Positions 3,103 through 20,401 of a stretch of 20,401 bases of DNA are shown here, in pieces. The notes beneath the pieces were generated by a model. It was given only the letters and a program-made list of their open reading frames with translations. It had not been told where the DNA came from and searched no databases. Source of the stretch: a virus. Both the position numbers and the translations under genes were made by a program. Numbering within the stretch: position 1 is the stretch's first letter; every line of letters starts with the position of its first letter. The DNA is taken from positions 1-20,401 of IMG/VR virus record IMGVR_UViG_3300006924_000275. One strand, written 5' to 3'.

Positions 3103-4155
3103 TCATTTATGTGTTTGTTTTGCATATGCATCTAACGAAAGCCATGTTCGAGTCAACCAGTCTGGTAAATTCTTCATTACAGCCCACATTTTATCTTCAT
3201 AAAATAATCTTTGAAACTCAGCTCTATTTAAAGCAGATACTGGTTCTGACATTATTCCTCTAATTTTAGAAGATACATTTGCAGATATATCTAATAATTT
3301 TATATCCATGAGTTGCCAATTTTTAATTAACGTTTCACGATTGTCTAAAATCTTTTGATATTTTTTTGTTTCCGTTAAAAGTTGATTACTTTTTTCGAAT
3401 AACTCTTCTAACGTAACTTGTTTTTCATGTACGATTTCTGGGATAAGTTTTAAGATAGTCTTTGGACCTATACCAGTTACACCAGGAATATTATCTGATT
3501 TATCTCCCGTAAATGATCTATATAATACCATATTACTAGGATGTACACCAAACTCATCTATAACTGCTTGGGTGTCATACATTTTCTTTTTAATAGGAGA
3601 CCATACTTGTATCCGATCGTCTACTAATTGATAGAAATCTCTATCGGTAGAAACAATTGTAATTTTTTTACATGTTTCATTGTACATTTGTGCAATATAG
3701 GCAATAGTATCATCTGCTTCTATGCCGTCCATTGCTAAAAAGGTTACTGGTAAATTATCTAAATATGAAACTAATCTACTAAATTGCTTTCTCATTGACT
3801 CTTGTTCATCTTCTATACTTGTTTCGTGATGATCAAATCTTCGAAGTTTAGTTTTATTAGCTCGATTTGCTTTATAACCTTTATAAATTTTTCTTCTTTT
3901 AGCGTTGCCGCCGCGTCCATCAAATGCAATAACACATCTGCTTGGTTTAAAGTCTCTAACAGTTTTACCTATAGAATATAAGAATCCAGTAATACCACCA
4001 ATATGGTCACCATCTTCATTATATGCTGGAGTTGCACCAAAACTTCTAATAAAGGTATTGAGCCCGTCAAATACCATGATATGATCATTAGCATCCTTCG
4101 GGCTCGTTTCCTTTTCTTTCTGTAACTCTTTAAATAATCGTTGATACTTATTCAT
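3103..4155 (-). CDS. rnh: 5'-3' exonuclease, FEN-1 / T4 RNase H family
   Basis: Expected to remove RNA primers and 5' flaps during lagging-strand synthesis. The 350 residues fit a PIN-fold FEN nuclease. Metal ligands are visible in order: D30 (MVFDG), D79 (AFDG), IEADD at 145-149, STDRD at 169-173. A helix-three-turn-helix region follows with GDKSDNIPGV at 217-226 and GIGPKT at 228-233. The basic stretch around 86-106 fits the arch that threads single-stranded ends. Length is close to T4 RNase H (305 aa) plus a short extension. The ATG at 4155 shares one base with the recA-like stop (TAATG) and is preceded by GAAGAAGGA, so it is translationally coupled. The recombinase before it and helicase after it support the replication role. 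The alternative, a flap endonuclease for recombination, uses the same chemistry. Confidence 0.93.
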   Translation of the reverse strand: MNKYQRLFKELQKEKETSPKDANDHIMVFDGLNTFIRSFGATPAYNEDGDHIGGITGFLYSIGKTVRDFKPSRCVIAFDGRGGNAKRRKIYKGYKANRANKTKLRRFDHHETSIEDEQESMRKQFSRLVSYLDNLPVTFLAMDGIEADDTIAYIAQMYNETCKKITIVSTDRDFYQLVDDRIQVWSPIKKKMYDTQAVIDEFGVHPSNMVLYRSFTGDKSDNIPGVTGIGPKTILKLIPEIVHEKQVTLEELFEKSNQLLTETKKYQKILDNRETLIKNWQLMDIKLLDISANVSSKIRGIMSEPVSALNRAEFQRLFYEDKMWAVMKNLPDWLTRTWLSLDAYAKQTHK

Positions 4156-10746: not shown

Positions 10747-12875
10747 TGTGTGAAATCTATTCTAGGTCTCATTATGCATTGTATTGACGTGTTCCATTCA
10801 CCGGTTGATGAGACACTATGATTTATTCCGATGATACAAAATACAGTGTTATTAGTATATCTTTTTGGTAATCCAGAAAATTCCAAAACATCCCCATATC
10901 TAAAACCATTTACGCCTTCTACTGTAAATGATGCATCAAACGGTATGACTGGTGCTTTTAAATTAACAGAATCTTCTAAAGCTGATTTAGGATATTGAAT
11001 GTATTTTTGCAAACTAGTATGTAATTTTGTTTGATTTTTACTTTCATCCATGTTTTTACCATATAATGCTATAGATCCAGATACTGGATCAGTTAATTCA
11101 AATAAATATTTTGCATTATTATCCTCGTATGACTGTTTAATTTTATTTAATGTTTCAACATTTGTTATATTTGAAACTGTGTCATTTCCGTTTGCATCAC
11201 GCTGTGTCTGTGTTGCACTATACATGTATGATAAGAATGGAGCTATTTCAGATTCTGATATATCAGCTGGATTCTGATTTAATACATATGCTAAATTAGA
11301 CGCATCACTCGGTAGTTTGCCATTGAAAGTAAAATCTTTAACAATAGTACCGGCTTCGTTATTTGCAAACATTGGCACATTAAATGCGTTGGGTACAGTA
11401 CTAAATGACTTAACATTGTTACTATCATAATATAATAGTGCATTTTGGTTATCTGGGTGAGTGACTAATTTTAAATCATAAGCTCCGCCTGATGCATAAT
11501 TTATTCTAGCAGATATTCGTTGTAAAAACTCAGCAACAGTGTATATTTTGTCTGTTGCCATTGCTGTTATTATTTGTTCAATAATTGTAGTTGATATGTA
11601 TATTAATGTGCAATATGATTCGGGCTTCGTGATATCCGCTTTGAAAAACTTAGGTTTTTTACTGTCTAACTCACCATACCATGTAAATGAACCATAATTA
11701 TCCTGGCCAGGGAAGAACACAGACAATGGATCCGCAGATACTAAATTTTCGTAATATTTACATGTATTTATTTCTCGATCAAAAACAATTTCAACATTTC
11801 CAACTACTGGAGCTGCTTTTGGCAGTATGAACTTATTAACAAAATTTATCAGTGCTTTCAATGTAATATATTTCATAGACTGCATATCTGATTTTGGAGC
11901 TCCCCAAATATAACTAACATCTTTTAATTTAGTATCAGTTTCATCGATATATATACCAGACGTCTTCGATCCTAATTCTATTCGCTTTTCTTCGATTACC
12001 TTTTCTATTTCTTCATGGAATGTAGTGACTGCAACTCCTTCAGCAGATCCACTCGTATTAGTTTTTTTACTAGTATCACTCATAGCCATCGAAAGATCAG
12101 TATATACTTGTGTGGTGCCTCTCATTGTTAAACTTGCAGCAACACTTGCATCTTGTTGATAATCCAATGTAAATGAAATAATAACACCGTCAAAAACAAA
12201 TGCATTCATTTTTTTATATTGTTGTTCCTGTTCTGGTGTTATATCCGGATATAACTCTTTGAGTTTTTCAGTTGATGGAATTGATCCTGGTGTTAAATAT
12301 GCAGTTTCACCAACAATAGCTGTATTAGGATGTTCTATATATATCTTTACATTTCTGCCTGGTCTTAAATAAACGGATTCGAAATAATCTAAATCTCTTC
12401 CAGGATTTGGTATTGTGACATTTGCGGTTGCAGTTTGCATAACACCCATCGAATCGTCACCTATAGAAACTTCTAATCCAGTTAAATATGGAGGTATTCG
12501 CTTTGATGTGTTGGTTCGTTGATCCGCTTTACCATCTGAACCAGTAATGCTATATATTCGATCGGTTATAAACCCACGTGGACCTGTTGGTAAATATTCG
12601 CCTTGCCTTACTCCAGCACCTCCTAATATTGCTTCAGTAATTGGTTCTTTTTTCGACGAAAATTGTTGTGGATTTCCATTTAGTGCTGCTCCTAGGGCTT
12701 CAATAGTATTAGTAGGGACATATGTAATATCATATGGAGTTATTGACACATTGGCAATTTTACTAACCATGTAGTTAATGTCTTTGGTTCGGCGATTGCC
12801 TTTACCTGCTGCTGCTCGAGCTAGTAATTCTAGTTGTAAATTAGCATCTACTTGTGAATAAAAAATATCACTCAT
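10743..12875 (-). CDS. Baseplate hub protein (gp27 / XkdQ / gpD-like)
   Basis: A 710-aa protein expected to form the hub under the tail tube, on which the central spike sits. An early domain has PYLTGLEVSIGDDSMGVMQT (128-147), then TANVTIPNP and VYLRPGRNVKIYIEH. This is the pattern of tail hub proteins: a described object, its coordinates, then a potential statement. A similar-sounding strand follows: FVFDGVIISFTLDY. The C-terminus, VNGFRYGDVLEFSGLPKRY then FCIIGINHSVSSTGEWNT, matches the last hub barrel (G-ygD-f-lP, gv-H-i--gW-T). The long centre is unassigned. No lysozyme domain is visible, so a separate spike is expected. The gene overlaps the LysM gene and the 205-aa gene by ATGA. Position after tape measure and LysM protein is where PBSX-type phages keep the hub. 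Name T4 gp27-like with caution. Confidence 0.82.
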   Translation of the reverse strand: MSDIFYSQVDANLQLELLARAAAGKGNRRTKDINYMVSKIANVSITPYDITYVPTNTIEALGAALNGNPQQFSSKKEPITEAILGGAGVRQGEYLPTGPRGFITDRIYSITGSDGKADQRTNTSKRIPPYLTGLEVSIGDDSMGVMQTATANVTIPNPGRDLDYFESVYLRPGRNVKIYIEHPNTAIVGETAYLTPGSIPSTEKLKELYPDITPEQEQQYKKMNAFVFDGVIISFTLDYQQDASVAASLTMRGTTQVYTDLSMAMSDTSKKTNTSGSAEGVAVTTFHEEIEKVIEEKRIELGSKTSGIYIDETDTKLKDVSYIWGAPKSDMQSMKYITLKALINFVNKFILPKAAPVVGNVEIVFDREINTCKYYENLVSADPLSVFFPGQDNYGSFTWYGELDSKKPKFFKADITKPESYCTLIYISTTIIEQIITAMATDKIYTVAEFLQRISARINYASGGAYDLKLVTHPDNQNALLYYDSNNVKSFSTVPNAFNVPMFANNEAGTIVKDFTFNGKLPSDASNLAYVLNQNPADISESEIAPFLSYMYSATQTQRDANGNDTVSNITNVETLNKIKQSYEDNNAKYLFELTDPVSGSIALYGKNMDESKNQTKLHTSLQKYIQYPKSALEDSVNLKAPVIPFDASFTVEGVNGFRYGDVLEFSGLPKRYTNNTVFCIIGINHSVSSTGEWNTSIQCIMRPRIDFTQ

Positions 12876-13171
12876 CTTGTTCTATTTGTTTGTATAACTT
12901 GATCTAAAAATTCTGTTTTTGCTGGTATTCTCATTTTGGTATTTGCTGGGACAACTAAAGTTCCTTTTCCTAATCCATTTGCTGCAGCAATTACCCACCA
13001 CAATGAAACATCACCATAAAATGTATTAGCCAATTTATCTAATCGATCTGCACTAGTAGTGATTATGAATGTGTCATTTGCAGTAGCTGGTATAGTTGGG
13101 AATATAGTAGTACTACGTCTACGCTTACCGTTTAGGTCTTTCATTATATTTGTGGTTGAATATCTACTCAT
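12872..13171 (-). CDS. LysM-like baseplate/tail protein (gpX / gp53 / XkdP C-terminal type)
   Basis: A 99-aa protein whose core DRLDKLANTFYGDVSLWWVI (42-61), then AAANGLG and VPANTKMRIP (74-83), is a LysM-like fold: it names a start (D-LD-LA--FYGD), a tryptophan pair, an Asn turn, and a final G/N-T--RIP strand. Such small proteins (P2 gpX, the LysM part of T4 gp53, Afp and PBSX counterparts) join the tube initiator and hub in contractile tails. Basic residues at 11-20 precede it. The ATG at 13171 follows AAGGGGC, and the stop overlaps the hub start by ATGA. Because it carries only the LysM unit, it appears to be a split version of larger LysM tail proteins, with the 501-aa neighbour as the other half. 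It is not a cell-wall hydrolase: no catalytic domain is present. Confidence 0.83.
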   Translation of the reverse strand: MSRYSTTNIMKDLNGKRRRSTTIFPTIPATANDTFIITTSADRLDKLANTFYGDVSLWWVIAAANGLGKGTLVVPANTKMRIPAKTEFLDQVIQTNRTR

Positions 13172-13173
13172 TA

Positions 13174-14679
13174 TTAGCCCCTTGCTGCATTTCTTTCTTC
13201 TCTTCTTGCGTCTTTTTCTAGTCGTTTAGCATCTGCCTCGGCTTGGCTTTTAGCTATTTTTGCTAATTCATCGACACTTAATTCTGCATTATTCCTAGTA
13301 TCACTTAACCAATTGTCATTTCCTGGTAGTGGTAGTCCCGAATCACCATCGAATCGTTTAGCCAATGAATAGAACTTGCCTCCTTTTTGCGGTAACCAAT
13401 CTGTGATAGGTGTTACTGTCATATTAACGTCTACCTTATGTGGTGTTTGCATCATCTGTGGATCTTGTTCTATGTTAGTTTCCCATGTTGTATCTGCACT
13501 ATGTAATGTGTAATTAACACTTTTTACTATCACTGCTTGTTGATTGAATAAGTCTCCTATAGTTATACGCATCCATGGGCCTACTAGTGCAATATTATCT
13601 GTGGTATATTCTGGTGCGGTATATCCGGCCAATGCATTTAATTTTCTCCAAATTGGTTTAACTTCATCTCTGTCTGTTGCATACACAGTAAAATCAATTG
13701 ATATGTCTCTGGTAAATCCGCCATACTGAAAATTTTGATCTCCCCTACCTATAAGTTGAAATCCATTCCATGACGCATTGAAGCTATCAGAAATCGAACC
13801 AATTACTGCACGGAAAACTATGATATCGTCTTCCTCGGTAGTGTTCCCGGCATGAAGCTTAGGTCCAGTAAAGAAAAACTTTATAAGATCTGCTGTTGTT
13901 CCGACTTTATCAAAAATCGCCGCATCTCCAAATATTTTAGGTTTAGGCAACCATCGATATGCATCTTTTAATTCTCGTTGACTAAAATCTATAACATTGA
14001 CTTTATCACCTCGGAATGGTGTTGCTTTAGATAATAGGTTTTTAGTAGGAATCCATGATCCTGGATCTTGTTTATAGTTACCTGGGCCAGATTCATCTGT
14101 CGACACATCGTTTACAATACCAGGAGACCATTGAGTAGCTACATGACTTTGTGCTGTAAAATCATTTCTCAAAGCATATGGATTATCATGATCTCCCCAA
14201 CCATACAATGTTTGCAAGTTAAATATAGAATATGGACCATACGGAGAAATAGATGTAGCAGAATATAATCCGGAGCGAATTGCATTTTTATTATTACCAG
14301 CATCTGAGCGATCGAATAGTGTTCTTTGCGATACCGCTAATCCGTCTACTCGTTTTGTTGATAATGCAATTGCAGTATCTACTCCCTCTTTAGGGAATTT
14401 TCTTGCTCTGAAGTCTGGATATTGTATTCCAACATTATTAGTTGACTTTAAAGCATTAACGGCAGATACAGCATAAGCAGATTTAGGAGAATAATTTTCT
14501 GAGCTATTAGTAAAACTTTGTCCAATTTGAGCTACTTGCGGTATTCCAGATAAACTACCAATTGCGCCTACGGCAAACCCTGTTGCTTTTTGAGCTAAAC
14601 TACCTAGAGTGATATTTGTGGTTTTAGCTTGTAGCGGAGTCCATTCTGCTGCATTTGGATATGTAGTATTAGTTGGCAT
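13174..14679 (-). CDS. Baseplate / tail-tube initiator-like protein (501 aa)
   Basis: Likely a ring protein between tail tube and hub. The recognisable core is residues 288-427: VFRAVIGSISDSFNASW, then LIGRGDQNFQYGGFTRDISI, TVYATDRDEVKPIWRKLNAL, a Y-APEY turn, and WMRITIGDLF followed by VNYTLHSADTTWE and TPHKVDVNMTVTPI. This strand pattern (GR-D--YxYxGF-R-I---F-V-A) resembles the tube-like domains of baseplate caps such as T4 gp48/gp54 and the N-terminal part of PBSX XkdP; the match is by pattern, not search. The first 60 residues are small and hydrophobic (FAVGAIGSLSGI), possibly membrane-active or packing. The last 40 residues are charged and likely coiled (EADAKRLEKDARREERNA). Its ATG shares one base with the tape-measure stop, and the LysM gene follows after two bases. 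Confidence 0.7.
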   Translation of the reverse strand: MPTNTTYPNAAEWTPLQAKTTNITLGSLAQKATGFAVGAIGSLSGIPQVAQIGQSFTNSSENYSPKSAYAVSAVNALKSTNNVGIQYPDFRARKFPKEGVDTAIALSTKRVDGLAVSQRTLFDRSDAGNNKNAIRSGLYSATSISPYGPYSIFNLQTLYGWGDHDNPYALRNDFTAQSHVATQWSPGIVNDVSTDESGPGNYKQDPGSWIPTKNLLSKATPFRGDKVNVIDFSQRELKDAYRWLPKPKIFGDAAIFDKVGTTADLIKFFFTGPKLHAGNTTEEDDIIVFRAVIGSISDSFNASWNGFQLIGRGDQNFQYGGFTRDISIDFTVYATDRDEVKPIWRKLNALAGYTAPEYTTDNIALVGPWMRITIGDLFNQQAVIVKSVNYTLHSADTTWETNIEQDPQMMQTPHKVDVNMTVTPITDWLPQKGGKFYSLAKRFDGDSGLPLPGNDNWLSDTRNNAELSVDELAKIAKSQAEADAKRLEKDARREERNAARG

Positions 14680-16595
14680 TATATTCGTTTCCTCCCGTTC
14701 ATTGATGTGTCACCCATTACGTTGCTTCCTCGAAGTGTAACAAGTATGCTTTGCAGAAGACTTTCCATTCTTGCATTTGATGTTACTGGTCCTCCTGCGG
14801 CATAACCAACTGGTCCGCCACTATTGATTTTGTCTAGCAATGATTTGTTTCTTCTGGTAGCTGCGGCATTAATAACATATTCACCGTCGGATAATCGGGC
14901 TGGTATCGAATCTGATGTTCCGGTGCCTGCGCCTGATATGTATCCACCAGTTGCTTTACCTGTTACTACTGGTTCAGCTGATGGATCTTTTATTATTGTA
15001 GTTAAATCCGTTATCTTCCCAGCAATCTTATCTATTCCTTTTCCTAATACTCCTGGTAATACCTCACCCAGTTGTTTTAATGGAACAAGTGATTCTTGCA
15101 ATCTATCACTAACAATACCTAGACTTCCAATGCCTTTTATAAAGTTCGGCTCTGTAAATGTTTCGGATGCTTTTCTTGCAAATTCCATCGATGCTTTAAC
15201 CGAATCGTTGAGGTCCTTTGTAAATACAGCTCCCGACGGGCCATCAGCAGTTCGTTTACCATCCCCAGCAATTATTCCGCCTTGTCCAATAAATGCTATA
15301 TCTTTTTTTATTGCGTCTAATGAGTCAGCGCTTCTTTCTGCAGGTGTTCTGGTGTCTGATGTTTTAAGTAACTCATCAATTTTTTTAAGTTTATCTTCAT
15401 CACCTTTAGCTTCTTCTTTAAGTTTTTGTATGGCACTTTGAGCATCATCAGCTGACATATTCATTATATCTTCAGCATTTAGATCGACCAATAGTTTTCT
15501 TTTCTGAATCATTTTGGCTAATGTTGCTTCGTCAGTTCCCATTAGCTGAGCAGCTTTCTGTCGTGCAAATAAATTCTTTTCAAGAGTATCACCTTCACTA
15601 GCAATGAATTGATTCATTAACTCTGCTTGTTTAGTAGCATCACCAGTTACAGTTGCCAGTCGATATTCGTTTGTTAAACTTTTACCTTGATTGTCTAATA
15701 ATCGCCGGCCGGTTAGTTGTTGGTATTCCATTTCTGCACCAATACTGGATTCTATGTTTAACAATGATTCTCCAGTACCATGTAAACTTTCCATGGATGT
15801 GCCTAACAATCTGGCTTTCATTGTGGCTACTTCTAATTTGTTTCCAACCCCACCATATTGCAATTGTAGATCTGATCCCATAGCAGCTATGTCTTGCATA
15901 ATTTGAGATTGTTGTTGCACTGCATCTATTCCGGTAAATTCTTCCAATGCTCTAGACATTTGTTCAATTTCACCTGCTGCTTCAGCTCCTGTTTTTCCGA
16001 TACCCGCAGCATATAATTCAAAGCTCTGTGCGCCTTCTTCTGATAATCCTATATTGTTTTGTAAAAATGTTTGTGTTTTAATTAGATTACTTAATGTAGT
16101 TTTTTGTACTTTATTAGACGTTATAAACCCACCAGTAATCTTTCCTAATCCTGCAGCATATTTAAATAGTTTAGCATCGCCAATTTCAACGTTAATAGCT
16201 CGTAACCGTTTAGAAAAATCAAATCCGCCGGCACTACTCAATTTAAATTCTTTTTGTAAGTCTTTTTGACTTTCTATTAAGAATGTGAGATTTTTTATTG
16301 ACTTTTCGGTTGCTTTTGCAAAATCATCAAAATAAGCAGTGGCTCTACCAACACCTGCTGACAATGCTGCAAATTCGCTGATGTTGGCTGAAACGAGCTT
16401 ACTCACATCTTCAATAGCCGGACCAACACCTTTTAATGACGCAGCGAAGGTATCGATTTCTTTAGCAATTTTAGCTACAGTACCGCCTTTATTTAAATCG
16501 CCAATAGATTTAGCAAATTTGTCAAATTCATTTGCCATACCGAGTCTAGGCTGCTTCTTTAATTCGTTAATAGACACGTGTTTTGAAGATCTCAT
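14679..16595 (-). CDS. Tail tape measure protein
   Basis: Sets tail length and fills the tube. The 638 residues are mostly helical and Ala/Leu/Lys-rich. The C-terminal part carries the hallmark ATGGYISGAGTGTSDSIPAR, then LSDGEYVINAAATRRN, and a second Gly-rich piece YAAGGPV. The G-GTGTSDSIPARLSDGEYV motif occurs at the end of many tape measures. A run at about 40-90 with regular heptads supports a coiled rod. By the usual rule of about 0.15 nm per residue the tail would be roughly 95 nm, similar to T4 (gp29, 590 aa). No peptidase or transglycosylase domain and no strong membrane segment is seen. The ATG at 16595 is preceded by AAAGAG and by the ATATTTAT element 17 bases upstream; an ATG 19 codons later (MANEFDKF) is a weaker alternative. 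It follows the chaperone frames, as in most long-tailed phages. Confidence 0.92.
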   Translation of the reverse strand: MRSSKHVSINELKKQPRLGMANEFDKFAKSIGDLNKGGTVAKIAKEIDTFAASLKGVGPAIEDVSKLVSANISEFAALSAGVGRATAYFDDFAKATEKSIKNLTFLIESQKDLQKEFKLSSAGGFDFSKRLRAINVEIGDAKLFKYAAGLGKITGGFITSNKVQKTTLSNLIKTQTFLQNNIGLSEEGAQSFELYAAGIGKTGAEAAGEIEQMSRALEEFTGIDAVQQQSQIMQDIAAMGSDLQLQYGGVGNKLEVATMKARLLGTSMESLHGTGESLLNIESSIGAEMEYQQLTGRRLLDNQGKSLTNEYRLATVTGDATKQAELMNQFIASEGDTLEKNLFARQKAAQLMGTDEATLAKMIQKRKLLVDLNAEDIMNMSADDAQSAIQKLKEEAKGDEDKLKKIDELLKTSDTRTPAERSADSLDAIKKDIAFIGQGGIIAGDGKRTADGPSGAVFTKDLNDSVKASMEFARKASETFTEPNFIKGIGSLGIVSDRLQESLVPLKQLGEVLPGVLGKGIDKIAGKITDLTTIIKDPSAEPVVTGKATGGYISGAGTGTSDSIPARLSDGEYVINAAATRRNKSLLDKINSGGPVGYAAGGPVTSNARMESLLQSILVTLRGSNVMGDTSMNGRKRI

Positions 16596-16626: not shown

Positions 16627-16905
16627 TTAATTTTTGAACTTTGGTCTGTTGATCTTATTTTTTTGTCGATTGACTTGATCTTGTTGATCTGCTGCAGCAT
16701 CACTCCGTATCTTGTTGATTCTAGATACCCATAGTTTACGAATTCGCAAAGGCATCGTGTATATGTCTTCAAATGACCAACGACCTTCACCAGCCCATAA
16801 TAGGTCAAATAATTGATTATGAAATAATACTTGGTCTTTTGCTTTAAAACCAAAAAAGGTCGAGCTTAAATTGAAATGTGGCAGGATAAGTGGCTCCCGC
16901 ATCAT
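16627..16905 (-). CDS. Second frame of the tail assembly chaperone, probable frameshift extension
   Basis: A 92-codon open frame that overlaps the end of the gp26/XkdN-like gene by 62 bases and ends just before the tape measure. Residues 27-60 read LFHNQLFDLLWAGEGRWSFE then DIYTMPLRIRKLWV: a compact helical domain with W-F-DIY-MP-xxR, a pattern I recall behind gp26-like genes in other T4-like phages. The tail is polar and basic. Its own ATGs at 16905 and 16902 have only a weak ribosome site (AGAAGTAGTGG). In phages the gene between tube and tape measure is commonly read through by frameshift to make a longer chaperone. I therefore infer that the real product starts at 17626 and enters this frame at the T6 run (16852-16857), giving about 332-333 aa. 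Independent translation remains possible. Confidence 0.65.
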   Translation of the reverse strand: MMREPLILPHFNLSSTFFGFKAKDQVLFHNQLFDLLWAGEGRWSFEDIYTMPLRIRKLWVSRINKIRSDAAADQQDQVNRQKNKINRPKFKN

Positions 16906-17626
16906 CCACTACTTCTGTTTCATAATTAATACCGGGTGCTGATTCCACAATATATTTTCTAAGTTTTCTACTATCTATTGCTCGCAGTTCATATTTTAAA
17001 TACTCTTCTATAATATTAACGTCCGTATCTCCGTTTATTGCATGGATTGACATTTTGAGAAATGAAGAGTTAATTGATTCGTCTTCTACTTTATTAGCAT
17101 CTGCAGCTGATAAATATTTAAATTTAATAACATCGTTATTACTAGGAATAATATATTCAAAACAACCGTTACTATCTGCTGCTTTATCAAATGTTCGTGA
17201 TTTTAACTTTGATAGATCCAATATTGCACTTACCGGCTTATCTGTTTTAGGATCAGTGACTGATACTGGATATTCATTTCCATATCCTAATATTCTGGCA
17301 GATATAATTAACCATTCTTTGTCACCAATAACAAGCTCAGAAATATCAACTCCTGGTGTTACAATTAATGCTTCTAGCAGTTTATCAAACATAACACCTT
17401 CGCTTATATAACTACTATTAGATAGTATGTCTTCATCATATGCAGTCATGTGCCGCATTTCTATTTTTCCTGAATTTAACACTGATGTTTCTGCATATAC
17501 TTTGCCTTGAGATGGCAATGTAATTATGTTTGCAGGAAATTTGCTGTTTTGCTTTTGTTGCTCGTACTGCTTTTTTGCTAATTCAACAATTTGTTTGTTG
17601 TCTAATCGATCGGTAACTTTACTCAT
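16844..17626 (-). CDS. Tail assembly chaperone / gp26-like baseplate protein (short frame product)
   Basis: A 260-aa protein of the T4_baseplate (gp26) type by pattern. LPSQGKVYAETSVLNSGKIE at 37-56 is followed by MRHMTAYDEDIL, then GVMFDKLLEALI, ELVIGDKEWLIISARILGYG at 97-116 and NEYPVSV. The blocks L-S-G-I--R-MTA-DEDIL and GD---L-I--RI-GYG are the family core. In T4 gp26 is called a hub component; in PBSX-type phages the gene at this place (XkdN) is the tail assembly chaperone that coats the tape measure. Position between tube and tape measure and the overlapping second frame favour the chaperone role. The last residues are FQFKLDLFWF. The ATG at 17626 follows GAGGATATT and lies 23 bases after an ATATTTAT element. 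The N-terminal 30 residues are Lys/Gln-rich helix. Confidence 0.83.
   Translation of the reverse strand: MSKVTDRLDNKQIVELAKKQYEQQKQNSKFPANIITLPSQGKVYAETSVLNSGKIEMRHMTAYDEDILSNSSYISEGVMFDKLLEALIVTPGVDISELVIGDKEWLIISARILGYGNEYPVSVTDPKTDKPVSAILDLSKLKSRTFDKAADSNGCFEYIIPSNNDVIKFKYLSAADANKVEDESINSSFLKMSIHAINGDTDVNIIEEYLKYELRAIDSRKLRKYIVESAPGINYETEVVDDAGATYPATFQFKLDLFWF
16850..16860 (-). promoter_or_regulatory. Candidate programmed frameshift site (T6 run)
   Basis: The minus strand reads GACCTTTTTTGGTTTTAAA, in frame 0 as GAC CTT TTT TGG TTT TAA. Phe-tRNA on TTT can re-pair perfectly after a +1 or a -2 slip within the six T. Either move enters the second frame (continuing GGT TTT AAA). The frame-0 stop lies two codons further on. 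A -1 slip would not reach that frame. Confidence 0.5.
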
Positions 17627-17718: not shown

Positions 17719-18243
17719 TTAGAAATTTAAGAATGCCCAATCGTATCGAAGATCCATTGAAATTTTAACAACGTCTTCACTTGACCAATCTAATTCACCA
17801 AAGTTTGTACTAGTAATATATGTTCCTTTTAATATCCATTCCTCAACTTTTTCACCTGATGGAGAAAGTGATGTCAATGTTACTTCTTTTTTATACATTG
17901 ATGAATACCCATCTCTACCAGTTGCAGATTCATGATGCAAACGTACCCAATCCATAACAGACTGTGCTGCTGATGGTACAATTGGATCATATAGTGATAT
18001 TGAGATTCCATTCCATTTAGTTTTACCTTTTACGTAACGTTGAACGTTCATGTGATCTAATACAATTTCTCCATTGTCTAGACTAGGTTTAGCAGATGAA
18101 TGTATAAGATATGCAGGTATGCCTTCTATTTCCATGATAAATTGATGCGACTTCTTTGGTTCCCATGAGTATGCGTTTTGCCAATAATTATTGTCAATAC
18201 CATAATCTTGAAAGTTCGCGTTTAATTGATCTTCTAATGCCAT
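17719..18243 (-). CDS. 19: Tail tube protein (gp19-like)
   Basis: Forms the inner tube through which DNA passes. The 174-aa protein starts MALEDQLNANFQDYG and has PKKSHQFIMEIEGIPAYLIH (27-48 region), then LDHMNVQRYVKGKTKWNGISI, and ends LKGTYITSTNFGELDWSSED then VVKISMDLRYDWAFL. These are the strand patterns of the T4 gp19 family: F-m-i-GIPayli, the RYVKGKTKW segment, and the G-f---f--ldws-ed-v-i---lryD- end. Length fits (T4 gp19 is 163 aa). I chose ATG at 18243 because ACAAGGAATACA precedes it; the same frame extends 19 codons further upstream, but that part is hydrophobic, runs into the terminator hairpin and would have no ribosome site. Terminators on both sides make it a one-gene unit, apt for a protein needed in many copies. 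Confidence 0.93.
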   Translation of the reverse strand: MALEDQLNANFQDYGIDNNYWQNAYSWEPKKSHQFIMEIEGIPAYLIHSSAKPSLDNGEIVLDHMNVQRYVKGKTKWNGISISLYDPIVPSAAQSVMDWVRLHHESATGRDGYSSMYKKEVTLTSLSPSGEKVEEWILKGTYITSTNFGELDWSSEDVVKISMDLRYDWAFLNF

Positions 18244-18265
18244 ATTGTATTCCTTGTATTTTAAT

Positions 18266-18329: not shown

Positions 18330-20401
18330 CTATTCAGGAAATGATGCACCCGTAGGTTGAATATTAAAGTCTAAGACAATAAATTCTGCCGTTCTAGTTG
18401 GTTGTAAAAATATTTGACCATACATTATATTTCTATCTATTACGTCTGGTGTGTTATTTGTTTCATCCATTACTACACGGAATGCTGACAAACCTTGTTG
18501 TGCTCTTACTTGTTCTAAATAAGGATTCACAATGCTCAAGAATCTGTTTCGTGTTGCTGAAGTGTTTTGTTCGAATACTAAGTATTTAGTTGACGACGCA
18601 ATAAACTTCTTAACTTCGATAAGCAAACGACGCACATTGACACGGTCTAATGCACTCGGACGAGCTTGCAATGTCTTTTGCCCCCAAACACAAATTCCTT
18701 CATTAGGGAAGTTTGCTATAGGATTAACACGATTCTCATACAACTCATCTCTATCTGATTGACTTAGATTCTTATATGTACCAATTGCTGTTGTCAAACC
18801 ACCTCTAGTTAAACCAGCTGGTGCATACCATGGTGCAGTTACAACATCATTAAATGCTAATACACCTGGCATCACTACTGATGGCGGAACGAAAATTGGT
18901 TTATTTTTTCCTGGATCTACAACTCTTACCCATGGGAAATATGTTGCTGCATAATTGCTATCAATATTTGTTACTTGTTGAACTACAGTATCAATATTAT
19001 CTGTTAATGCATTACTATCCATTATATAGAATGTGTCTTGTCTTTGTTCTACCAAGTTTCTAGCAGCACTAGTTACTAATGGGTGAAGGCTATCAATAAC
19101 ACCTGGTGTTATCAACATGTTCATATCATAATAATCTGCATTACTTAGCAATGTGAATGCTTTATTATATGCCTTAGTTCCAGTTGTGGCTGTACCACTA
19201 CAATCAAATCCAAATGTGTTTGTAGATTTAATATTTGTTCCTGATAGTTTAGGTAAATTAGGACGAGCTCCATCAAACCCACCTTGCATTGGCACCATAA
19301 ACTTTCTAGTGTTAATAGAAACGTTGCTAGTAAATGTATTAGCATTCAATGCTGTTGTCAATGATCCACTATATGCAGTTGCTGCTGTTGGGAAATTTGC
19401 TTCCGCATCTTGGCTTACATCACCTAGATAAAAGTCTACATTACTACCAGTAGTCGAATTAGAAGTTGGAATTGGAGATAAATAATTCAAGTTATTCAAA
19501 TTATCAAAATCAAATCCGAAATAATTTCTGCTATTAAATGTGGTTTGAACTTGTGATGTTAATGTTTCTGTTGCTGGTAAATTAAGTGATGCACTATACA
19601 TCGGAATTGGCGATGTTAATGCCACAAACCCAAATGGTATCAATGTTTCACTGTTTGTTTTTTCTGCTACACCTGGATCAACTTCCACTCTAATAAATTT
19701 AGATAAATTAGGATAATCACCATTAACAACAATATCACCAGCATCAGTTACTGTGCTGTATCGGTCTCCAATTACTCTAGAAATATATCTAGGAGAGTCT
19801 GGATCTAAATTTAGATTTGTAAATGATTCAACAATATCCGGTGTTCTGTCTGTGTCTTGTGATGAATATGGAGTATTAGCAATATTGGTAGTGTTTACAC
19901 GTCTTACCTCTACTGTAAATGTTCCGTATCCATTTGGATCTGAAACTTCGCTAGCAAGTCTAATATCACGAATACCAATTTTCACTTCAGAACTAACTGA
20001 GGTACCATGTGATAGTGTGTGAAATTTAAATAGATTCTTTGCCGTTGTTCCAATTTTCTGAGAAGTAATAAACGGTGTTGCTGCTGTTTTATAATCTTCT
20101 AAAAATGCATAGTTACTACCAGTTACTTGTTCCAATGAAATAGTGACATCAGCCATATTATTAAACAAGCTAGATGCATTTTTATTTTCATATTGTACAT
20201 ATACTGGATAATCAACTGATTTTGGATTTCTACCAAATATTTTTGTTATATAATTATTTGCAGTGGAGTCAATTGATGCCGAAATAAAGTCTGTTGATAA
20301 ATATGCAGAATATCCAGGTATAGATGAATCAGTAGCAAATGAACCTGAAACTTTAATTTTTAATGATCCAGAAGCTAAATCTTCTAATGCTGTTTTTTCA
20401 A
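18330..20401 (-). CDS. 18: Tail sheath protein (gp18-like), N-terminus beyond window
   Basis: The contractile outer tube of the tail. About 690 codons are visible and the frame is open at the right edge; T4 gp18 has 659 aa, so most of the protein is here. The upstream part translates to GSLKIKVSGSF, then NNYITKIFGRNPKSVDYPVY, a sheath N-terminal pattern. The C-terminal part is diagnostic: YENRVNPIANFPNEGICVWG, then QKTLQARPSALDRVNVRRLL, IEVKKFIASSTKYLVFEQN, ATRNRFLSIVNPYLEQVRAQQGL and MYGQIFLQPTRTAEFIVLDF. This is the conserved sheath C-terminal domain that forms the handshake mesh with the tube. The central insert (about 200-400) is Asn/Thr-rich and variable, as in the surface domains of gp18. 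A TTG at 20168 could be read as a start, but coding continues well upstream. A terminator follows the stop. Confidence 0.95.
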   Translation of the reverse strand, partial: EKTALEDLASGSLKIKVSGSFATDSSIPGYSAYLSTDFISASIDSTANNYITKIFGRNPKSVDYPVYVQYENKNASSLFNNMADVTISLEQVTGSNYAFLEDYKTAATPFITSQKIGTTAKNLFKFHTLSHGTSVSSEVKIGIRDIRLASEVSDPNGYGTFTVEVRRVNTTNIANTPYSSQDTDRTPDIVESFTNLNLDPDSPRYISRVIGDRYSTVTDAGDIVVNGDYPNLSKFIRVEVDPGVAEKTNSETLIPFGFVALTSPIPMYSASLNLPATETLTSQVQTTFNSRNYFGFDFDNLNNLNYLSPIPTSNSTTGSNVDFYLGDVSQDAEANFPTAATAYSGSLTTALNANTFTSNVSINTRKFMVPMQGGFDGARPNLPKLSGTNIKSTNTFGFDCSGTATTGTKAYNKAFTLLSNADYYDMNMLITPGVIDSLHPLVTSAARNLVEQRQDTFYIMDSNALTDNIDTVVQQVTNIDSNYAATYFPWVRVVDPGKNKPIFVPPSVVMPGVLAFNDVVTAPWYAPAGLTRGGLTTAIGTYKNLSQSDRDELYENRVNPIANFPNEGICVWGQKTLQARPSALDRVNVRRLLIEVKKFIASSTKYLVFEQNTSATRNRFLSIVNPYLEQVRAQQGLSAFRVVMDETNNTPDVIDRNIMYGQIFLQPTRTAEFIVLDFNIQPTGASFPE

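What the first reader, a model, noticed from the sequence alone, without database searches (positions are those of the whole stretch)
16844..16905. Probable programmed +1 or -2 frameshift in the tail chaperone gene
The gp26/XkdN-like gene (frame 0) and the small downstream frame overlap by 62 bases. A T6 run lies two codons before the frame-0 stop. The second frame is offset so that only +1 or -2 slippage enters it. Phe-tRNA can re-pair perfectly for either. Tail chaperone frameshifts between tube and tape measure are established in lambda, P2 and Mu-type phages, mostly -1. A +1 or -2 version within a gp26-like protein would link the T4 hub protein to the chaperone family. The fused product would be about 332-333 aa.
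Basis: partly seen in the sequence, partly recalled or inferred. Interest (0 to 1): 0.7.

Follow-up and report, generated by a model that had tools for sequence, protein, structure and literature searches.

The report
Frameshifted T4-gp26-type tail assembly chaperone
A marine phage tail gene carries a conserved slippery spot where some ribosomes jump reading frame, so that one gene makes a short and a long assembly chaperone; the two-product trick is known, but here a relative of phage T4's gp26 uses the uncommon +1 (or -2) direction.

Summary
On the minus strand a gp26-like gene (17626-16844) and a +1-frame ORF overlap by 62 bases, with CTT_TTT_TGG (16858-16850) just before the frame-0 stop. 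It is not chance: a profile of the second ORF finds it in the +1 frame in 155 loci, spanning 97 lineages below 85% nucleotide identity. The last codon before the shift is TTT, TTC or CTT, followed by TGG in 92/97. In 21/97 the +1 frame has no start codon before the conserved domain; in 16/97 it is closed within 9 nt upstream, so only a frameshift reaches it. The extension is under purifying selection. The locus lies between tail tube and tape measure: a G/GT-type tail assembly chaperone built on the T4 gp26 fold. The extension corresponds to the small cyanophage gp51, which sits in the -1 frame behind T_TTT_TTC in 80/80 cyanophage-type loci. T4 gp51 is gp26 plus that extension, a two-gene form. 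The T4 part, and -1 poly-T sites in T4-like phages, are already published (Vladimirov et al. 2022, known here only through citing papers). What may be new is the +1 branch and its site. +1 fits better than -2; no protein evidence exists.

The parts
16844..17626 (-). ORF1, gp26-like short chaperone (TAC-N), 260 aa
   Evidence: PF12322 E 4.9e-10 above the curated cut-off; phrog_150 8e-11; model pLDDT 90.5 matches T4-like hub assembly proteins
16850..16858 (-). Frameshift site CTT_TTT_TGG
   Evidence: site tally over 97 lineages; unique in frame in the window
16627..16857 (-). +1-frame extension (T-domain, gp51-like), read after the shift; 76 aa from FFG to its stop
   Evidence: found in the +1 frame of 155 loci; dN/dS 0-0.25 in frame; hhalign to cyanophage gp51 extension E 2.8e-6, probability 88%; helical model pLDDT 87.8
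16844..16908 (-). Stretch within which the shift must occur in this sequence (after the upstream +1-frame stop, up to the frame-0 stop)
   Evidence: reading-frame map; relatives with nearer stops narrow it to about five codons round the site
17719..18246 (-). Tail tube protein (gp19-like), upstream neighbour
   Evidence: phrog_4542 6.5e-24
18330..20399 (-). Tail sheath protein
   Evidence: PF04984 1.5e-14, PF17482 3.5e-10
14679..16595 (-). Tape measure protein, downstream neighbour
   Evidence: phrog_25241 4.8e-16 and other tape measure profiles

Best explanation
The locus is one tail assembly chaperone gene read in two ways. Most ribosomes make the 260-aa gp26-like short form and stop at TAA 16846-16844. 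A minority pause with tRNA-Phe on the second codon of CTT_TTT_TGG, slip into the +1 frame (most likely +1, TTT to TTT on ...TTT TGG; -2 is possible) and continue to 16627, giving a 332-aa long form with a C-terminal helical extension. By analogy with lambda G/GT the short form would coat the tape measure protein and the scarcer long form would recruit tube protein. Shown here by sequence: conserved overlap, frame, site and protein. Inferred: that the shift happens, its direction, its efficiency and the protein's role.
For: Position between tube and tape measure genes. ORF2 profile found in the +1 frame in 155 loci. 97 lineages below 85% identity: sites TTTTTTTGG 48, CTTTTTTGG 32, TTTTTCTGG 6, TTTCTTTGG 3, TTTTTTTAC 3, ATTTTTCGG 2, and one each TTCTTTTGG, GCTTTTTGG, CTTCTTTGG. 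At the two Phe codons of the +1 frame the wobble base is T in 93/97 and 95/97, against 77-81% TTT elsewhere in these genes. 21/97 have no ATG/GTG/TTG in the +1 frame up to codon 12 of the domain, 16/97 have a +1-frame stop within 9 nt upstream. dN/dS 0-0.25 in ORF2's frame, mostly near or above 1 in the others. The frame-0 residues after TGG and the stop position are not conserved. The wider gp26 family has a -1 site at the homologous place.
Against: No protein or ribosome data. No downstream structure stands out (z about 0) and no upstream stimulator was identified. Two ATGs open the +1 frame in the window itself, and some lineages have an ATG with a weak Shine-Dalgarno-like run, so start-site use cannot be excluded in each phage singly. 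One clade (GAT TTT TTC TGG, 6 lineages) fits +1 at that codon poorly. ORF1 matches no solved structure, so homology to lambda-type chaperones is not shown.
Confidence: 0.88

Rival explanations
1. The same dual-product gene, but the ribosome slips back by two bases (-2), as reported for phage Mu, giving a 333-aa product.
For: In CTT_TTT_TGG tRNA-Phe re-pairs perfectly either way. The GAT TTT TTC TGG clade (6 of 97 lineages) allows TTC to TTT by -2, while +1 at that codon would need TTC to TCT. -2 is known for Mu (PMC5009743).
Against: -2 pairs badly at TTC_TTT_TGG (L157), GCT_TTT_TGG (L165), TTC_TTT_CGT (Streptococcus phage GXN1) and AAC_TTT_CTA (L086), where +1 pairs well. +1 one codon earlier also covers the TTT_TTC clade. 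TTT_CGN variants match a known +1 motif (PMC7230728).
Confidence: 0.2
2. ORF2 is a separate small gene with its own start inside ORF1 (ATG 16905 or a near-cognate codon after the GGAG box), made by coupling or reinitiation; no frameshift.
For: ATG codons at 16905 and 16902 open the window's +1 frame; a conserved GGAG lies about 40 nt upstream of the site; 28/97 lineages have a start codon with at least 4 nt of Shine-Dalgarno match. Small separate gp51 genes are annotated in cyanophages and KVP40.
Against: No start position is conserved; 21/97 lineages have none and 53/97 have no ATG. In several the +1 frame opens only 3 nt before the site. This would not explain conservation of TTT_TGG at wobble positions. 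The GGAG is also explained by the frame-0 protein motif.
Confidence: 0.07
3. Transcriptional slippage on the T run inserts or deletes a base, rather than ribosomal slippage.
For: Runs of 6-7 T in most lineages.
Against: The frame relation survives in lineages whose longest T run is 3 to 5 (CTTCTTTGG, TTTCTTTGG, TTCTTTTGG, ATTTTTCGG, GCTTTTTGG). From general knowledge, efficient slippage usually needs longer runs.
Confidence: 0.03
4. A chance overlap or a recent frameshift mutation that split one gene.
For: Two adjacent ORFs of one family can arise that way.
Against: Same offset in 97 lineages, identical sequence in independent metagenomes, purifying selection on ORF2, and a different but equally placed -1 site in relatives.
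Confidence: 0.01

Closest known systems
T4-like phage tail assembly chaperones gp26 / gp51 (Vladimirov, Gautam and Davidson 2022; read here only through PMC10885494 and PMC12846349)
   Same: ORF1 is a PF12322/gp26 relative; T4 gp51 is a gp26-like domain plus a C-terminal piece matching the cyanophage extension; poly-T -1 sites in other T4-like phages were also found here independently.
   Different: The window's branch uses the +1 (or -2) frame and a YTT_TGG site; T4 itself uses two genes and no frameshift. Whether the 2022 paper mentions +1 members could not be read.
Lambda G/GT and P2 E+E' tail assembly chaperones
   Different: Lambda and P2 use -1; no structural match of ORF1 to solved structures, so common descent is not shown.
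Phage Mu (-2) and haloviruses HSTV-2 / HF1 group (+1) tail chaperone frameshifts
   Same: Second frame reached by +1 or -2; HF1 viruses have a TTT-CGC motif close to the TTT_CGG and TTT_CGT variants seen here.
   Different: Not shown to be gp26 relatives; the site otherwise differs.
Bacterial RF2 +1 frameshift (CUU_UGA)
   Same: CUU to UUU slippage in the P site also serves the CTT_TGG variants here.
   Different: RF2 pauses on a stop codon with a Shine-Dalgarno stimulator just upstream; here the A-site codon is TGG and no such stimulator is seen.

Membership tests
G/GT-type tail assembly chaperone locus | Lies between tail tube and tape measure genes | tested here: met
   tube 18246-17719, ORF1/2, tape measure 16595-14679
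G/GT-type tail assembly chaperone locus | Second ORF overlaps the end of the first in another frame and has no conserved start | tested here: met
G/GT-type tail assembly chaperone locus | Conserved slippery site in the overlap | tested here: met
G/GT-type tail assembly chaperone locus | Short and long products made in a set ratio and absent from virions | not testable with these tools
   needs proteomics
G/GT-type tail assembly chaperone locus | Binds tape measure and tube proteins | not testable with these tools
   needs binding assays
G/GT-type tail assembly chaperone locus | Fold shared with solved lambda/HK97-type chaperones | tested here: inconclusive
   no PDB match by profile or fold for ORF1
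T4 gp26 family (PF12322) | Profile match above the curated cut-off | tested here: met
   39.9 bits against a cut-off of 24.5
gp51 / baseplate hub assembly catalyst (phrog_634) | Profile match of the extension | tested here: inconclusive
   window ORF2 alone: none; 3 of 55 relatives match, best 0.0016; ORF2 alignment against cyanophage gp51 alignment 88%, E 2.8e-6; against T4 gp51 directly no match
Canonical -1 X_XXY_YYZ frameshift | Downstream ORF in the -1 frame | tested here: not met
   offset is +1; met only in the cyanophage/KVP40/Rhizobium branch and a few others

The most novel reading that the evidence does not exclude
Within one chaperone family (gp26) the frameshift direction changed between -1 and +1 at the same residue pair (Phe-Phe) while the two-product output was kept, and at least twice the frameshift was dropped (T4 by gene duplication, Vibrio phage D532 by a separate gene). 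The +1 branch uses a YTT_TGG site of a kind not described for tail chaperones, without an obvious structural stimulator.
Probability: 0.6. Interest if true: 0.62.

Novelty: new variant of a known kind. Interest (0 to 1): 0.52.

Why it matters
The long form is missed or cut in most annotations of this group, so the real chaperone is not in the databases. A family that keeps two products while switching between -1 frameshift, +1 frameshift and two genes is a natural experiment on what matters in tail assembly: the presence and ratio of short and long form rather than the way they are made. The CTT_TTT_TGG site is compact and directly testable as a bacterial +1 signal.

Tried and rejected
Downstream RNA structure: z-scores scatter round zero in 17 loci. 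The GGAG box as a start signal for ORF2: the codon at -27 is ATG in some lineages but CTG, CAG, ACG or others elsewhere. Direct profile match of ORF2 to T4 gp51: none; the link goes through cyanophage gp51. Solved structures: none for ORF1, only chance-level for ORF2. Fold search of ORF2 in viral models gave one clear hit to an unnamed phage protein and only weak ones to tape measure chaperones. I first took the T4 gp26/gp51 result to be new; a citation found late shows it was published in 2022.

Full report
Observation. All main genes of the window run on the minus strand in the order sheath (20399-18330), tube (18246-17719), ORF1 (17626-16844), ORF2 (+1 frame, ending 16627), tape measure (16595-14679). 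ORF1 matches PF12322 (T4 gp26 family) at 4.9e-10, above the curated cut-off, and phrog_150 'baseplate hub'. The end of ORF1 reads GAC CTT TTT TGG TTT TAA; ORF2 reads ACC TTT TTT GGT TTT AAA. The overlap from ORF2's first ATG is 62 nt, as reported, and the +1 frame is open from 16908. The window is itself an isolated 20.4-kb virus record.

Comparative test in the window's own branch. Two scans of viral contigs gave loci from 100% down to about 31% protein identity. A profile of ORF2 found it in the +1 frame of ORF1 in 159 loci, of which 155 give a complete, well-registered domain. The exceptions were truncated contigs, one locus with an indel in ORF1 (L018), and named phages of the -1 branch. 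In 97 lineages below 85% nucleotide identity the nine bases are TTTTTTTGG 48, CTTTTTTGG 32, TTTTTCTGG 6, TTTCTTTGG 3, TTTTTTTAC 3, ATTTTTCGG 2, TTCTTTTGG 1, GCTTTTTGG 1, CTTCTTTGG 1. What frame 0 encodes after TGG is not conserved (WF*, WPNL*, WPDAGV* and so on), while the +1 frame continues a conserved domain FFG(L/F)...H..(I/L)F.L...G.G...W...Y.MP..(L/I)R.

Why a frameshift. In 21 of 97 lineages there is no ATG, GTG or TTG in the +1 frame up to codon 12 of the domain, and in 16 the frame is closed by a stop within 9 nt upstream of the site. Taken together, the nearest upstream +1-frame stops and the nearest frame-0 stops leave about five codons, which hold the T-rich site. Wobble positions at the site are T in 93/97 and 95/97, against 77-81% elsewhere in the same genes; relatedness of the sequences means this is indicative and not a probability. 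The single-coded part of ORF2 has dN/dS of 0 to 0.25 in frame.

Direction. For CTT_TTT_TGG both +1 and -2 allow perfect re-pairing of tRNA-Phe. TTC_TTT_TGG, GCT_TTT_TGG, TTC_TTT_CGT and AAC_TTT_CTA favour +1. TTT_TTC_TGG favours -2, or +1 one codon earlier. CTT_TGG fits both with one first-position mismatch, as in RF2. +1 explains all sites with one rule, so I give it about 4 to 1 over -2. TTT_CGN variants match a motif already linked to +1 shifts, including a proposed one in HF1 haloviruses (PMC7230728). Transcriptional slippage is unlikely, because variants with T runs of only 3-5 keep the frame relation.

The wider family. Cyanophages, KVP40 and Rhizobium phages encode a small 'gp51' right after gp26. 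In 80 of 80 cyanophage-type loci the gp26 end contains T_TTT_TTC in frame and gp51 lies in the -1 frame, open upstream of that heptamer. The same heptamer type is in KVP40, LG08, RHph_I1_9, Melnitz, S-CRM01, Aeromonas G2, Cronobacter S13, Atu_ph07 and RAS14. In Melnitz the -1 frame begins exactly at the heptamer with no start for 21 codons. The small gp51 resembles ORF2 (hhalign 88%) and the last 45 residues of T4 gp51 (E 1.2e-4). T4 gp51 residues 1-201 are a gp26 paralogue (PF12322 3.9e-52; blastp gp26 against gp51 2e-6), and phrog_150 places P-SSM2 gp51 exactly after the end of gp26. In a tree T4 gp26 and gp51 are sisters (94/93; gp51 is a long branch, so the place is unsure) inside the -1 branch. 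T4 gp26 still ends ..EFF.. but with GAG TTC TTT GAG, which is not a slippery heptamer. T4 thus makes the short and long forms from two genes.

What is known. A 2016 review calls the tail chaperone frameshift widely conserved except in T4 and lists -1, -2 and +1 uses (PMC5009743). Vladimirov et al. 2022 identified the T4-like chaperone genes; citing papers state that some T4-like phages carry one short and one fused long gene (PMC10885494) and that poly-T -1 signals are known in T4-like TAC genes (PMC12846349). The original is not held. So the T4 part here is independent confirmation. The +1 branch may be new; I found no paper describing it, but most subscription papers could not be searched.

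Structure. ORF1 models well (pLDDT 90.5) and matches T4-like hub assembly proteins among viral models but no solved structure. The extension models as helices (pLDDT 87.8). Homology with lambda-type chaperones is therefore not shown; the claim is that it works like them and is a member of the gp26 family.

Noticed in passing
L094 about 3169-3345; L257 about 2196-2370; L092 about 3280-3515: Cronobacter phage S13, Aeromonas phage vB_AdhaM_G2 and Agrobacterium phage Atu_ph07 have a gp51-like extension in the -1 frame behind TTTTTTC that is missing or wrongly started in their annotation.
   Followed up: partly
L255 2190-2393; L093 3169-3360: Annotated gp51-like genes of Melnitz and Rhizobium phage LG08 start at an internal ATG and lose the first residues of the domain.
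   Followed up: partly
L107, L109, L110, L112, L114, L115: One clade has GAT TTT TTC TGG at the site, which fits -2 slippage or +1 one codon earlier; it may have a different shift direction from the rest.
   Followed up: partly
window 16885-16905 (minus strand) and equivalents: A GGAG box about 40 nt upstream of the site recurs in most close relatives; explained by the frame-0 protein motif but not tested for a role in frameshifting.
   Followed up: partly
L018 about 2600-2745: Frame-0 indel near the 3' end of ORF1 with the site intact; assembly error or damaged gene.
   Followed up: no
L258 1483-2340: Vibrio phage D532 has no heptamer; its gp51-like frame starts with a stop-start overlap (TAATG), a possible third way to make the second product.
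   Followed up: no
window 12872-13171: Small protein with weak similarity both to T4 gp53 and to tail protein X (LysM) profiles.
   Followed up: no
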